64,000 nucleotides of DNA from positions 2,542,001 to 2,606,000 of the forward strand of contig NZ_UPHU01000001.1 of assembly GCF_900566075.1 (NCBI RefSeq), given 5' to 3'. The notes beneath the pieces are model-generated. The model was not told the origin of the DNA. It worked only from the letters and a program-made list of their open reading frames with translations, and ran no database searches. Made by a program: the position numbers and the translations under genes. This DNA comes from Mycobacterium pseudokansasii (lineage in GTDB: Bacteria; Actinomycetota; Actinomycetes; Mycobacteriales; Mycobacteriaceae). Shown piece by piece: positions 21,539 through 25,241 of this stretch. The stretch's first letter is position 1; each line of letters begins with the position of its first letter.

Positions 21539-23008
21539 ATGACGAACGACCTCCCAGACGTTCAGGAGCGCGGCCCCGCTCTGCGCCCTGCTCCTCCTCC
21601 TGGCGGGCCACCGCTGTCAGACGTGTGGGTCTACAACGGGCGGGCATACGACCTCAGCGATTGGATATCCAAGCATCCCGGTGGCGCCTTCTTCATCGGG
21701 CGCACCAAAAATCGCGATATCACCGCGATCATCGCCTCCTACCATCGTGATCCGGCCAAGGTAGAGCGAATCTTGGAGCGCCGCTACGCCCTGGGCCGCG
21801 ATGCAACGCCGCGCGATATCCATCCCAAACACAACGCTCCGCCGTTCCTGTTCAAAGACAGCTTCAACAGCTGGCGGGACACCCCCAAGTACCGTTTCGA
21901 CAACCCCGACGACTTGATGCACCGCGTCAAAGCGCGGCTGACCGAGCCGGCGCTGGGCGCGCGGATCAAACGGATGGACCGGCTGTTCAATATCGTCGTG
22001 GCGCTGCTGGCCGCCGCGTATGTGGCGGTCCAGGGTGTGCGGTTGGCCGAACCACGGTGGATGCCGTTGTGGGCCTTTGTGATTGCCATGGTGCTGCTGC
22101 GCAGTTCGCTGGTCGGCTACGGCCATTACGCGTTGCATCGGGCGCAACGGGGCCCTAATCGGTTCTTCGCCAATGCCTTCGACCTGAACTATGTGGCGTT
22201 GTCGTTGGTGGTCGCCGACGGGCACACGTTGCTGCATCACCCGTACACCCAAAGCGACGTCGACATCAAGAAGAACGTCTTCACGATGATGATGCAGCTG
22301 CCGCGGCTGTATCGGGTGCCGGTGCATACGGTTCACAAGTTCGGCCACCTGCTCACCGGCATGGCCATCCGCATCGCCGACGTGTGGAACATGACTCGCA
22401 AGGTGGGTGTCGAGGAGGGCTACGGAAGTTGGCGCAATGCGCTGCCACACTTCCTGGGGTCGTCCGGGGTGCGTCTGCTCCTGGTCACCGAGATGGCGGT
22501 CTTCGCCCTGGCCGGCGACTTCTGGGCCTGGGCACTGCAATTCGTCGTGACGCTGTGGGTCAGCACCTTCCTGGTGGTGGCGAGCCACGAGTTCGAGGAC
22601 GACGCCGGCGAGCCCGCCCCAACCGGTGAAGACTGGGGCGTGGACCAAGTGGTGCACGCCAACGACCTGGTGGTGGTCGGGAATCGCTATGTCGACTGCT
22701 TCCTGTCGGCGGGCCTGAGTTCGCACCGCGTCCACCATGTATTGCCGTTCCAGCGCAGCGGGTTCGCCAACATCGTCACCGAGGACGTATTACGGGAAGA
22801 GGCGGCGAAGTCCGGCGTGGAGTGGCTTCCGGCAAAGAGTTTCGTGACCGATCGGCTGCCGAAGCTCTGCCGCACCTACCTGCTCTCGCCGTCGCGCCAA
22901 GCCAGGGAGCACAAGTGGGGTTTCCTGCGGGAACACTGCTCGCCGGCGGCCTGGAAAGCCAGTGCCGGCTACGTGGTTGCCGGCTTCGTCGGAATCGGGT
23001 CGGTATGA
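21539..23008 (+). CDS. Cytochrome b5-fatty acid desaturase/hydroxylase fusion (Rv1371 homologue)
   Basis: A 489-residue membrane protein. Residues 26-80 form a cytochrome b5-like haem domain with HPGG (His46) and a second candidate ligand His69. Membrane helices lie near 148-168, 175-195, 310-330 and 335-352, with a fatty-acid desaturase domain. Its His boxes include GHYALHR (around 198), HTLLHHPYT (around 230) and HRVHHVLPF (around 400). These bind a di-iron centre in front-end desaturases. It probably desaturates or hydroxylates a lipid acyl chain. A CTGGAGG site precedes the ATG. Its stop overlaps the pks18 start, so the two are coupled. Confidence 0.85.
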   Translation: MTNDLPDVQERGPALRPAPPPGGPPLSDVWVYNGRAYDLSDWISKHPGGAFFIGRTKNRDITAIIASYHRDPAKVERILERRYALGRDATPRDIHPKHNAPPFLFKDSFNSWRDTPKYRFDNPDDLMHRVKARLTEPALGARIKRMDRLFNIVVALLAAAYVAVQGVRLAEPRWMPLWAFVIAMVLLRSSLVGYGHYALHRAQRGPNRFFANAFDLNYVALSLVVADGHTLLHHPYTQSDVDIKKNVFTMMMQLPRLYRVPVHTVHKFGHLLTGMAIRIADVWNMTRKVGVEEGYGSWRNALPHFLGSSGVRLLLVTEMAVFALAGDFWAWALQFVVTLWVSTFLVVASHEFEDDAGEPAPTGEDWGVDQVVHANDLVVVGNRYVDCFLSAGLSSHRVHHVLPFQRSGFANIVTEDVLREEAAKSGVEWLPAKSFVTDRLPKLCRTYLLSPSRQAREHKWGFLREHCSPAAWKASAGYVVAGFVGIGSV

Positions 23009-24198
23009 GCAGCGCAGCTGAGGGTGGCGCCCTGCGCCCGGTGGCCGAGGCGCCCGGCTGCGAAGCCCACTATGACCTCGCCCAGTTGCCACCGGCTCCG
23101 CCGACAACGGTGGCGGTCATCGAAGGCATGGCTACCGGGGGGCCGCGACGGGTGGTCCGGCAGTCCGACGCCGCTGCGCAGGTGGCCCAGATGTTCCTCG
23201 ACCCGCAACAGCGGGAACGGGTTACCCGGGTCTATGAGAAGACCCGCATCGACACCCGGAGGATGGCCGTCAATCCGCTGGACGCCGAGTTCGACGCATT
23301 CCGGCGCGAACCCGCAACCATCCGGGACCGGATGGGCCTGTTCTACCGGCATGCGGTACCGCTGGCGGTCGAGGTGAGCCGGCGTGCGCTCGACGGACTT
23401 TGCCACGGTGCCGAAGAGATCGGGCTGTTGGTGTTCGTCACCAGCACCGGGTTCATCGCTCCGGGCGTGGACGTGGCGATCGTCAAGGAACTCGGCCTGT
23501 CGCGGGCGATTTCGCGAGTCGTGGTCAATTTCATGGGATGTGCGGCGGCGATGAACGCCATTCGCACCGCCACCAATTACGTCCGAGCCCACCCGGCAAT
23601 GAAGGCGTTGGTGGTGTGCATCGAATTGTGCTCGGTCAACGCGGTTTTCGCCGACAACATCAACGATGTGGTGATCCACAGCCTGTTCGGCGATGGCTGT
23701 GCCGCGCTGGTGATCGGTGCCAGCCAGGTGCGACAGCAGTTGCCGGCGGGCAGTGTGGTGATCCGCAGCAACTTCAGCCGGCTCCTCGACGACGCCGAAG
23801 ACGGCATCGTGCTGGGCGTCAATCATGACGGCATCACCTGCGAACTGTCAGAGGACCTGCCCGACTACATTTACCGCGGAGTTGCGCCAGTCGTCGCAGA
23901 AATGCTGCAGGACAACGGATTACAACAGTGCGATATCGATCTGTGGGCGATCCATCCGGGTGGTCCCAAGATCATCGAACAGTCGGTGCGCTCGTTGGGC
24001 GTCCCGGCCGAGCTCGCGGCGCCCAGCTGGGATGTGCTGGCACGCTTCGGCAACATGCTGAGCGTCTCGCTGATCTTCGTGCTGGAAATGATGGTGCGGC
24101 AGGCGGAGTCGGCAAAACCCATCTCGACCGGCGTGGCGTTCGCCTTTGCGCCGGGGGTCACCGTCGAAGGCATGCTGTTCGATATCGTGCGCCGGTGA
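23005..24198 (+). CDS. pks18: Type III polyketide synthase Pks18
   Basis: A chalcone-synthase-like homodimeric enzyme of 397 residues that condenses long-chain acyl-CoA with malonyl-CoA to alkyl pyrones. The triad is complete: Cys179 in NFMGCAAAMN, His317 in WAIHPGGPK and Asn350 in RFGNMLSVS. The sequence follows H37Rv Pks18 closely apart from the first 30 residues. The ATG at 23005 overlaps the stop of the desaturase gene (ATGA). A longer frame from 22822 lies inside that gene and is rejected. The sulfotransferase gene follows after 32 nt. Confidence 0.93.
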   Translation: MSSAAEGGALRPVAEAPGCEAHYDLAQLPPAPPTTVAVIEGMATGGPRRVVRQSDAAAQVAQMFLDPQQRERVTRVYEKTRIDTRRMAVNPLDAEFDAFRREPATIRDRMGLFYRHAVPLAVEVSRRALDGLCHGAEEIGLLVFVTSTGFIAPGVDVAIVKELGLSRAISRVVVNFMGCAAAMNAIRTATNYVRAHPAMKALVVCIELCSVNAVFADNINDVVIHSLFGDGCAALVIGASQVRQQLPAGSVVIRSNFSRLLDDAEDGIVLGVNHDGITCELSEDLPDYIYRGVAPVVAEMLQDNGLQQCDIDLWAIHPGGPKIIEQSVRSLGVPAELAAPSWDVLARFGNMLSVSLIFVLEMMVRQAESAKPISTGVAFAFAPGVTVEGMLFDIVRR

Positions 24199-24230
24199 CC
24201 GCGGCTTTGACACTCGAAGGGAGGTGGCAC

Positions 24231-25241
24231 ATGACCAATGCCCCCGGGCGGCCGAATGCCAATGCACCGGCGACGGACCGCGTCCTGTACCGCTCGTTGA
24301 TGACCGACAGTACGCGCTGGGACGCCCTGCAACTGCGTGACGGCGACATCATCATCTCGACGCCGTCCAAGTGCGGCATGACCTGGACACAGCGGCTGAT
24401 TTCGCTGCTTGTCTTCGACGGGCCGGAATTGCCGGGACCATTGTCGACCGTGTCACCGTGGCTCGACCAGACCATCCGGCCCATCGAGGAGGTGGTCGCC
24501 GTCCTCGACGCACAGGACCACCGCCGGTTCATCAAGACCCACACCCCGCTGGACGGTCTGGTGCTCGATGATCGCGTCACCTACATCTGCGTCGGCCGCG
24601 ATCCGCGCGATGCCGCAGTGTCGATGCTGTTCCACGTCGCCAACGTCGATGCCGAGCGACTGCGGGAATTGCATGAGGCCGCGGTGCCCCCGCCGCTGCA
24701 GCCGGGTCGGCCGGGGCCCGGGCCCGCCCCGCAATCCGGTGGCCGCGGCCCGGCCGAGGAGTTCCGGCACTGGATGGAGGGGCCGGCCCTGCCACCGCCG
24801 GGCGTGGGGTTCGCGCCCCCCAAAGGAATCGGAACGCTGGCCAACGTGCTGCACCACTTCGGCACGGCATGGGAGCGGCGGCACCTGCCGAATGTGGCGC
24901 TGTTCCACTATGCCGACTACGAGGTGGACCTGATAGCCGAGCTGATGCGGCTTGCCGCGGTACTCGGTATCGACCTGAGTCGCGATCGCGCCCGCGAACT
25001 CGTCGCCCACGCGTCGCTGGACGCCATGCGATCCCGCGCGGCGGAGATCGCCCCCAACACCACCGACGGCATCTGGCACAGCCAGGAGCAATTCTTCCGC
25101 CGCGGCCGCAGCGGCGACTGGCAGCAGTATTTCGGCTACGAGGAGCACCGCCGCTACAACCACCGCATCAACCAGCTTGCCCCACCGGATCTGCTGGCCT
25201 GGGCGCACGAGGGGCGCCGGGGCTACGACCCCGCCGCCTGA
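24231..25241 (+). CDS. PAPS-dependent sulfotransferase (Rv1373 homologue)
   Basis: A 336-residue cytosolic sulfotransferase related to Rv1373, which is known as a glycolipid sulfotransferase. The 5'-phosphosulfate loop STPSKCGMTWTQ is at residues 43-54, KTHTPLDG (around 101) gives the catalytic His, and CVGRDPRDAAVS (around 123-134) the 3'-phosphate site. A Pro/Gly-rich insertion (PPPLQPGRPGPGPAPQSGG, around 156-175) is unusual. A GGGAGGTGG ribosome site precedes the ATG. It is the third gene of the desaturase-pks18-sulfotransferase operon, so its acceptor may be a hydroxyl on the polyketide product. Confidence 0.87.
   Translation: MTNAPGRPNANAPATDRVLYRSLMTDSTRWDALQLRDGDIIISTPSKCGMTWTQRLISLLVFDGPELPGPLSTVSPWLDQTIRPIEEVVAVLDAQDHRRFIKTHTPLDGLVLDDRVTYICVGRDPRDAAVSMLFHVANVDAERLRELHEAAVPPPLQPGRPGPGPAPQSGGRGPAEEFRHWMEGPALPPPGVGFAPPKGIGTLANVLHHFGTAWERRHLPNVALFHYADYEVDLIAELMRLAAVLGIDLSRDRARELVAHASLDAMRSRAAEIAPNTTDGIWHSQEQFFRRGRSGDWQQYFGYEEHRRYNHRINQLAPPDLLAWAHEGRRGYDPAA

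What the first reader, a model, noticed from the sequence alone, without database searches (positions are those of the whole stretch)
21539..25241. Desaturase-type III PKS-sulfotransferase operon: a possible sulfated alkylpyrone pathway
A cytochrome b5-desaturase fusion, Pks18 and a sulfotransferase are tightly packed; the first two overlap by ATGA. Pks18 makes long-chain alkyl pyrones, the desaturase/hydroxylase could modify the acyl chain and the sulfotransferase could cap a hydroxyl. The product would be a sulfated, unsaturated or hydroxylated alkylpyrone or resorcinol lipid, which I do not know to be described. The convergent methyltransferase may add a methyl group.
Basis: inference. Interest (0 to 1): 0.75.

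Follow-up and report, generated by a model that had tools for sequence, protein, structure and literature searches.

The report
LprF–desaturase–Pks18–sulfotransferase lipid module
Three neighbouring genes that probably make a sulfated fatty compound in a mycobacterium turn out to belong, with a lipid-carrying lipoprotein and in relatives an export pump, to one conserved set of genes that keeps being found together in mycobacteria and their cousins, which gives a testable role to a lipoprotein (LprF) whose cargo is not established.

Summary
In detail: a cytochrome b5-desaturase (21539-23008), Pks18 (23005-24198, ATGA overlap) and a sulfotransferase (24231-25241) lie head to tail. The idea is not new: the orthologous rv1371/2/3 operon was shown in 2026 to be co-transcribed in BCG and proposed to make a negatively charged lipid; no product is identified (PMC13141999). 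My evidence enlarges the unit. The lipoprotein gene upstream (about 20407-21267) is the LprF orthologue. Pks18, desaturase and LprF occur in exactly the same 21 of 198 genus genomes. In 80 loci found by the desaturase, from five genera, Pks18 is beside it in 79 and LprF in 77; flanks differ between lineages looked at. In 60 of 80 a SyrD-type ABC exporter follows Pks18. At these loci a sulfotransferase occurs in 18, all mycobacterial, and in 17 of 18 without the exporter; some species carry two types in tandem. Best reading: a make-and-export module for a long-chain Pks18 lipid, sulfated in mycobacteria, carried by LprF. Joint function is strongly supported; the sulfated alkylpyrone is inferred. 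The convergent methyltransferase is not tied to it.

The parts
20407..21267 (+). LprF orthologue, LppX_LprAFG lipoprotein (start codon chosen by inspection, MNGLIS..., lipobox VITGC; the longest ORF starts at 20308)
   Evidence: PF07161 E 6.6e-60; best solved structure 4qa8 LprF E 1.1e-94; on one side of a branch with the 20 other sampled Pks18-locus lipoproteins; orthologues in the same 21 of 198 genomes as Pks18
21539..23008 (+). cytochrome b5-fatty acid desaturase fusion (Rv1371 orthologue)
   Evidence: PF00173 + PF00487; three His boxes and both haem His invariant in the 45 homologues aligned
23005..23008 (+). ATGA overlap of desaturase stop and pks18 start
23005..24198 (+). Pks18-type type III polyketide synthase (Rv1372 orthologue)
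   Evidence: 1ted E 2.3e-204; C179, H317, N350 invariant in 13 of 13 aligned
24231..25241 (+). PAPS-dependent SULT-type sulfotransferase, type B of two types (Rv1373 orthologue)
   Evidence: PF00685; H104, R123, S131 invariant in 22 of 22 aligned; tree
25255..25914 (-). convergent methyltransferase: neighbour, not judged part of the module

Best explanation
The locus is the mycobacterial form of a conserved make-and-export lipid module. Proposed order: (1) the membrane cytochrome b5-desaturase puts a double bond into a long acyl chain (inferred from family and motifs); (2) Pks18 takes the long-chain acyl-CoA and extends it with malonyl units to an alkyl/alkenyl 4-hydroxy-2-pyrone (pyrone formation from C6-C20 starters is stated for the Mtb enzyme in PMC13141999; inferred here); (3) the SULT-type sulfotransferase transfers sulfate from PAPS to an OH of that lipid, most simply the enolic 4-OH (inferred); (4) the lipid leaves the cytoplasm, in the exporter-bearing modules through the SyrD-type ABC protein encoded next to Pks18, in the window's lineage by an exporter encoded elsewhere (inferred); (5) the LprF lipoprotein, a relative of the lipid carriers LppX and LprG, ferries it outward (inferred). 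What is shown: LprF, desaturase and Pks18, plus ABC exporter or sulfotransferase, are kept, placed and lost together.
For: Same 21 of 198 genomes for Pks18, desaturase and LprF (LprF orthologues 208 bits or more, next hit in the genus 103). Sulfotransferase in 20 of those 21 and otherwise only in G015, where remnants of lprF and pks18 lie beside it. In 80 loci found by the desaturase: Pks18 in 79, LprF in 77, ABC exporter directly after Pks18 in 60, sulfotransferase in 18. Flanks differ between lineages looked at (window: beta-lactamase-family gene and pyrR; G090, G386, G005: panD/coaX side; eight loci of Nocardia, Gordonia, Tsukamurella, Antrihabitans; a Tsukamurella plasmid). In Nocardia 37 of 88 genomes have LprF; all 30 loci fetched of the 37 have the desaturase within 1.5 kb. 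This ABC exporter in 4 of 198 genus genomes, each beside Pks18. Co-transcription of the orthologous three genes and lipid changes on deletion in BCG are reported (PMC13141999).
Against: No product has been identified in anything I found; the 2026 knockout changed features but named no lipid. Recombinant Rv1373 is reported to sulfate ceramide and trehalose glycolipids (cited in PMC13141999), so its natural acceptor may not be a pyrone. In G015 the sulfotransferase frame is open although desaturase and most of pks18 and lprF are gone. LprF ends 271 nt before the desaturase in the window and is on the opposite strand in 24 of 77 loci, so it need not share the transcript; [quoted passage not shown] 62 of the 80 loci show no sulfotransferase, so sulfation is not the core function. 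No exporter is identified for the window's lineage. Genomes of one genus are related, so 21 shared cases are not 21 independent events.
Confidence: 0.6

Rival explanations
1. The sulfotransferase is a glycolipid (trehalose-type) sulfotransferase that acts on lipids unrelated to Pks18, and the operon is only a convenience of expression.
For: Recombinant Rv1373 is reported to act on ceramide and trehalose glycolipids (cited in PMC13141999). No sulfotransferase at the loci outside mycobacteria, none in G175, and an open sulfotransferase frame in G015 beside a decayed module (for this last I raised the odds from 0.20 to 0.22).
Against: In 198 genomes this sulfotransferase (E<=1e-40) occurs in 20 of the 21 Pks18 genomes and otherwise only in G015. 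Its nearest solved structures are retinol dehydratase and phenol/steroid SULTs; none of the 44 profile hits is labelled a trehalose sulfotransferase.
Confidence: 0.22
2. The desaturase is an acyl hydroxylase and the sulfate sits on the chain hydroxyl rather than on the pyrone.
For: PF00487 includes hydroxylases (recalled); the hydroxylase SCS7 is among the solved structures matched, though only through its b5 domain.
Against: Three His boxes of desaturase type, invariant in the 45 aligned. The enzyme stands in 59 exporter-bearing loci without a sulfotransferase, so its modification is not made for sulfation alone. No structure could be predicted.
Confidence: 0.15
3. LprF is a regulator or sensor of the pathway (for example through KdpD) rather than a carrier of the lipid.
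For: [quoted passage not shown] it is divergently transcribed in 24 of 77 loci.
Against: Its family members LppX and LprG carry lipids (LppX and DIM stated in PMC3850990; LprG recalled), and in exporter-bearing modules it stands with an exporter. In the Nocardia genomes G396 and G397 and the Gordonia genome G399 it is the only PF07161 match.
Confidence: 0.15
4. The genes are neighbours by inheritance only, without a common pathway.
For: Distances of the four proteins correlate (0.79-0.85 in 49 loci), as expected also from common descent alone.
Against: The set stays together at several genomic places with different flanks and on a plasmid, and is absent as a set.
Confidence: 0.04

Closest known systems
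rv1371/2/3 operon of the M. tuberculosis complex (PMC13141999)
   Same: Orthologous genes and order, overlap of the first stop with the second start; published hypothesis of a PKS lipid core modified by desaturase and sulfotransferase; co-transcription by RT-PCR in BCG
   Different: The paper parts I read (1, 2, 3, 5 of 5) treat three genes only. In the M. tuberculosis strain of PMC4236100 an IS6110 lies upstream of Rv1371, with Rv1368 (lprF) beyond it (H37Rv likewise by recall), which may have hidden LprF. Gap Pks18-sulfotransferase 5 nt there, 32 nt here
DIM export with the lipoprotein LppX
   Same: PKS-made lipid with a PF07161 lipoprotein as carrier
   Different: LppX works with an MmpL transporter (recalled); the relatives here have a SyrD-type ABC exporter, or no exporter gene directly at the locus
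LprG-P55 lipid transport pair (also in this window, about 61.8-63.1 kb; names recalled)
   Same: PF07161 lipoprotein encoded beside a transporter
   Different: LprF and its kin separate from it in the tree and go with Pks18, not with an MFS pump
SyrD/PvdE-type cyclic-peptide export ABC transporters (TIGR01194)
   Same: The exporter of G386 scores 394 bits against a cut-off of 286; those of G203, G175 and G090 also pass
   Different: Stands beside a type III PKS, carries a Pro/Gly-rich insert, and has no over-cut-off match in the window's genome

Membership tests
Pks18-type type III polyketide synthase | Cys-His-Asn catalytic triad | tested here: met
   C179, H317, N350 invariant in 13 of 13 aligned; triad recalled from the family
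Pks18-type type III polyketide synthase | long-chain acyl-CoA use giving alkylpyrones | not testable with these tools
   stated for the Mtb enzyme in PMC13141999
Cytochrome b5-fused PF00487 desaturase | three His boxes plus two haem His of the b5 domain | tested here: met
   H196/H200, H229/H233/H234, H396/H399/H400, H46/H69 invariant in the 45 aligned; Cyt-b5 found in 45 of 45, FA_desaturase in 44 of 45
Front-end desaturases (b5 fusions with Q in the third box, recalled) | third box QxxHH | tested here: not met
   third box is H396-x-x-H399-H400 in all 45
Cytosolic SULT-type sulfotransferases | PAPS 5' loop, catalytic His, 3' phosphate Arg and Ser | tested here: met
   PSKCGMTW loop; H104, R123, S131 invariant in 22 of 22 aligned; nearest solved structures are SULTs and retinol dehydratase; motif roles recalled
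LprF | PF07161 domain, lipobox, grouping apart from LprG/LprA/LppX-like paralogues | tested here: met
   (support 94/95, under the tool's star level; 96% of 200 bootstrap trees); lipobox by inspection
rv1371/2/3 operon | co-transcription of the three genes | not testable with these tools
   shown in BCG (PMC13141999); here only tight spacing
Module form with SyrD-type ABC exporter | exporter gene after pks18 | tested here: not met
   absent at the window locus and no TIGR01194 match over the cut-off in the window's genome (weaker ABC-superfamily matches exist there, as in all 12 genomes)

The most novel reading that the evidence does not exclude
LprF is the dedicated outward carrier of an old, still unnamed Pks18 lipid shared by Nocardia, Gordonia, Tsukamurella and mycobacteria. 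In mycobacteria one or two sulfotransferases took the place of the ABC exporter, so the same lipid core became a sulfated (perhaps doubly sulfated) envelope lipid sent out by another route. LprF's cargo and the product of rv1371/2/3 would then be one answer.
Probability: 0.4. Interest if true: 0.75.

Novelty: new variant of a known kind. Interest (0 to 1): 0.57.

Why it matters
The products of Pks18, Rv1371 and Rv1373 and the cargo of LprF are separate open questions. If they are one pathway, each becomes testable with the others: a lipid found in LprF should vanish without Pks18, and environmental species with the non-mycobacterial module offer a place to find the unsulfated core. It would also be a case in which a sulfotransferase replaces an exporter within a conserved lipid locus.

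Tried and rejected
Methyltransferase as a tailoring step: rejected on distribution. Solitary Pks18-like genes: in the family draw 35 of 251 genomes have Pks18 and 33 the desaturase, 32 both. The four exceptions were looked at: G430 stops at a contig end, G440 keeps a shortened pks18 still followed by the ABC gene, G448 and G606 are Pks18-like genes without other module genes in the stretch fetched. G015, which has the sulfotransferase alone, I first took for a contig break (note); on re-checking the contig end shows an lprF piece joined directly to a short pks18 piece before the sulfotransferase, so it is a decayed module (or a mis-assembly). First LprF family tree is void: I translated seven rows on the wrong strand; done again. 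Promoter/terminator scan of 20100-26000 uninformative: 2 promoter-like sites (both minus strand) and 2 terminator-like, no more than about what shuffles give. Rfam over the window at gathering threshold: 0 matches. Distance correlation is weak evidence because common descent alone would give it. Structure prediction of desaturase and sulfotransferase failed, so there is no fold-based test of hydroxylase against desaturase. Searches failed through my own off-by-one coordinates and were repeated as 16-19.

Literature: all ten searches were Rv1373+sulfotransferase (5 papers), Rv1371+pks18 (2), LprF+Rv1368 (7), LprF+glycolipid+lipoprotein+mycobacterium (14), pks18+desaturase (6), sulfated+alkylpyrone (1), type III polyketide synthase+mycobacterium+alkylresorcinol+methyltransferase (7), sulfotransferase/stf3/sulfomenaquinone (10), LprF+pks18 (0), Rv1368+Rv1371 (1). 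PMC13141999: parts 1, 2, 3 and 5 of 5 read; PMC3087520, PMC10714837, PMC3850990, PMC3031603, PMC4236100: passages only; all others: search listing only. That the LprF-Pks18 link is not in print rests on these searches of an open-access library alone.
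Full report
Setting. The window is bases 2542001-2606000 of contig 1 of a 6.43 Mb, two-contig mycobacterial genome. The nearest named relatives listed at this locus are M. attenuatum, M. gastri, M. persicum, M. innocens and M. ostraviense (95-97% identity of the desaturase), so it belongs with the M. kansasii group (inference; no name was given).

The observation. Desaturase 21539-23008, Pks18 23005-24198 and sulfotransferase 24231-25241 are open frames in line; ATGA overlap at 23005-23008; 32 nt to the sulfotransferase. Pfam, NCBIfam and PDB comparisons give cytochrome b5 plus FA_desaturase, a chalcone-synthase-type PKS nearest to 7cb3 and Pks18 (1ted), and a PF00685 sulfotransferase nearest to retinol dehydratase and cytosolic SULTs; NCBIfam has no model for desaturase or sulfotransferase at E 0.01. 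Catalytic residues are kept: Cys179/His317/Asn350 of the PKS in 13 of 13 aligned; three His boxes and both haem His of the desaturase in 45 of 45 aligned; His104, Arg123, Ser131 of the sulfotransferase in 22 of 22 aligned (the frame-broken G045 copy is left out). The rows were chosen by me from the loci in hand. Residue roles are recalled family knowledge.

What is in print. PMC13141999 (2026; [quoted passage not shown] The product is not identified. It also says that the rv1371 insertion is shared by the animal strains of the complex that it analysed.

LprF belongs to the unit. The gene upstream is an LppX_LprAFG lipoprotein (PF07161) whose best solved match is LprF, 4qa8 (E 1.1e-94; LprG 1.5e-19, LppX 2.4e-8). 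LprF is Rv1368 (PMC3850990, passage). In 198 genus genomes LprF orthologues (208 bits or more) occur in 21; the next-best hit is 103 bits; this line was drawn after seeing the list. These 21 are exactly the genomes with Pks18 and, within these 198, with the desaturase (33 of the 396 searched there; set comparison). A tree of 29 PF07161 domains puts 21 lipoproteins from Pks18 loci on one side of a branch and 8 other family members on the other (support 94/95, below the tool's star level; 96% of 200 bootstrap trees). In two Nocardia and one Gordonia genome it is the only PF07161 match; Antrihabitans has 2, Tsukamurella PLM1 3, M. arenosum 2, the window's genome 5. In Nocardia, 37 of 88 genomes have it (E<=1e-15); of the 37, 30 loci were fetched and all 30 carry the desaturase within 1.5 kb.

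Relatives have an exporter. A scan of genome contigs with the desaturase alignment confirmed 94 stretches and kept 80 loci (found through two peptide patterns, so not a full census). Of 80, 79 have Pks18 next to it (the other, L184, is a contig end), 77 have LprF on the other side (missing: L131, a second copy in M. gordonae; L155 and L179, cut by contig ends), 60 have an ABC exporter directly after Pks18, 18 have a sulfotransferase (15 one, 3 two), all 18 in mycobacteria. One of the 80 (L168, M. arenosum) has both; in G005 an exporter broken over two contigs is followed by a sulfotransferase. The three loci with neither (L115, L118, L184) stop at contig ends. The G386 exporter exceeds the cut-off of TIGR01194. 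In 198 genus genomes the exporter (E<=1e-60) occurs in 4, each next to Pks18; among 12 genomes tested with TIGR01194 the 4 with such loci exceed the cut-off and 8, the window's genome among them, do not. A Tsukamurella plasmid carries lipoprotein (divergent), desaturase, PKS and ABC protein in its own annotation.

Place. pyrR lies downstream in 28 of the 29 window-type loci of the genus (the 29th, G010, is a contig end). Upstream of LprF the window has a beta-lactamase-family gene, as M. tuberculosis has Rv1367c before Rv1368, an IS6110 and Rv1371 (PMC4236100). In G090, G386 and G005 the unit follows panD- and coaX-like genes (names recalled); the eight Nocardia, Gordonia, Tsukamurella and Antrihabitans loci that I read show other flanks again. 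Three genomes (G120, G203, G227) carry a second copy of desaturase-pks18-ABC without LprF and sulfotransferase. The unit is therefore relocated, and absent, as a unit (inference).

Sulfotransferase. In 198 genomes it occurs (E<=1e-40) in 21: 20 of the 21 Pks18 genomes (not G175) and G015. In G010 and G005 it is on another contig than pks18, in both cases beside the break. G015: the contig end holds a piece of lprF joined to a 44-residue piece of pks18, then an open sulfotransferase frame; no desaturase in the genome at the thresholds used. So the set decayed there while the sulfotransferase frame stayed open, which is evidence for the old neighbourhood and also a point for the rival that it has a life of its own. 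Tandem pairs stand in 7 of 36 genus loci (G161, G029, G113, G188, G216, G236, G340). A tree of 28 copies gives two types: A (first of each pair, and M. arenosum) and B (second of each pair, the 12 single copies in the tree including the window, and G005), 100/99, rooted at the midpoint only. Two sulfotransferases may thus be old in Mycobacterium, the window keeping B (inference).

Against the reading. Family draw: 3 of 35 Pks18 genomes lack the desaturase (G440 remnant, G448 and G606 without module neighbours) and 1 of 33 desaturase genomes lacks Pks18 (contig end). LprF is divergent in 24 of 77 loci. Rv1373 is reported to sulfate glycolipids. No structure model could be made. Search thresholds were set before each search; the LprF bit line and the 1e-80 line for the methyltransferase were drawn afterwards.

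Verdict. Joint function of LprF, desaturase, Pks18 and exporter or sulfotransferase: about 0.9. A sulfated alkylpyrone-type product in the window's species: about 0.5. Overall statement as written: 0.6.

Noticed in passing
L126, L138, L150, L161, L168, L170, L180 and others (ABC exporter, desaturase N-terminus, sulfotransferase middle): Pro/Gly-rich low-complexity stretches (20 residues at 60% or more P+G) in three unrelated module proteins: ABC 59 of 60, desaturase 18 of 80 (16 of 22 mycobacterial), sulfotransferase 8 of 21; 0 of 79 Pks18, 0 of 72 LprF, 0 of 12 methyltransferases; 0 of 319 flanking control ORFs, but the codon-position filter that chose the controls disfavours Pro/Gly-rich proteins. 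Meaning unknown; perhaps co-assembly.
   Followed up: partly
window 62469-63041, minus strand: A second PF07161 lipoprotein, LprG-like, beside an MFS-type transporter (names recalled); not part of this module.
   Followed up: partly
L033 (G045), about 7978-8957, minus strand: Sulfotransferase reading frame is broken in this species although desaturase and Pks18 are open.
   Followed up: no
L099 (G015), about 8947-9268: Decayed module: pieces of lprF and pks18 fused beside an open sulfotransferase frame; a mis-assembly is not excluded.
   Followed up: partly
L206 (Tsukamurella tyrosinosolvens plasmid NZ_LR134450.1): The four-gene module lies on a 302 kb plasmid record; a 2.66 Mb Nocardia farcinica record in the plasmid collection also matches.
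   Followed up: partly
L042, L079, L084 (G120, G227, G203): Second copies with desaturase, pks18 and ABC but no LprF and no sulfotransferase, in genomes that also have the window-type locus.
   Followed up: partly
window 25966-27630, minus strand: PE_PGRS-type gene (name recalled) between the methyltransferase and pyrR.
   Followed up: no
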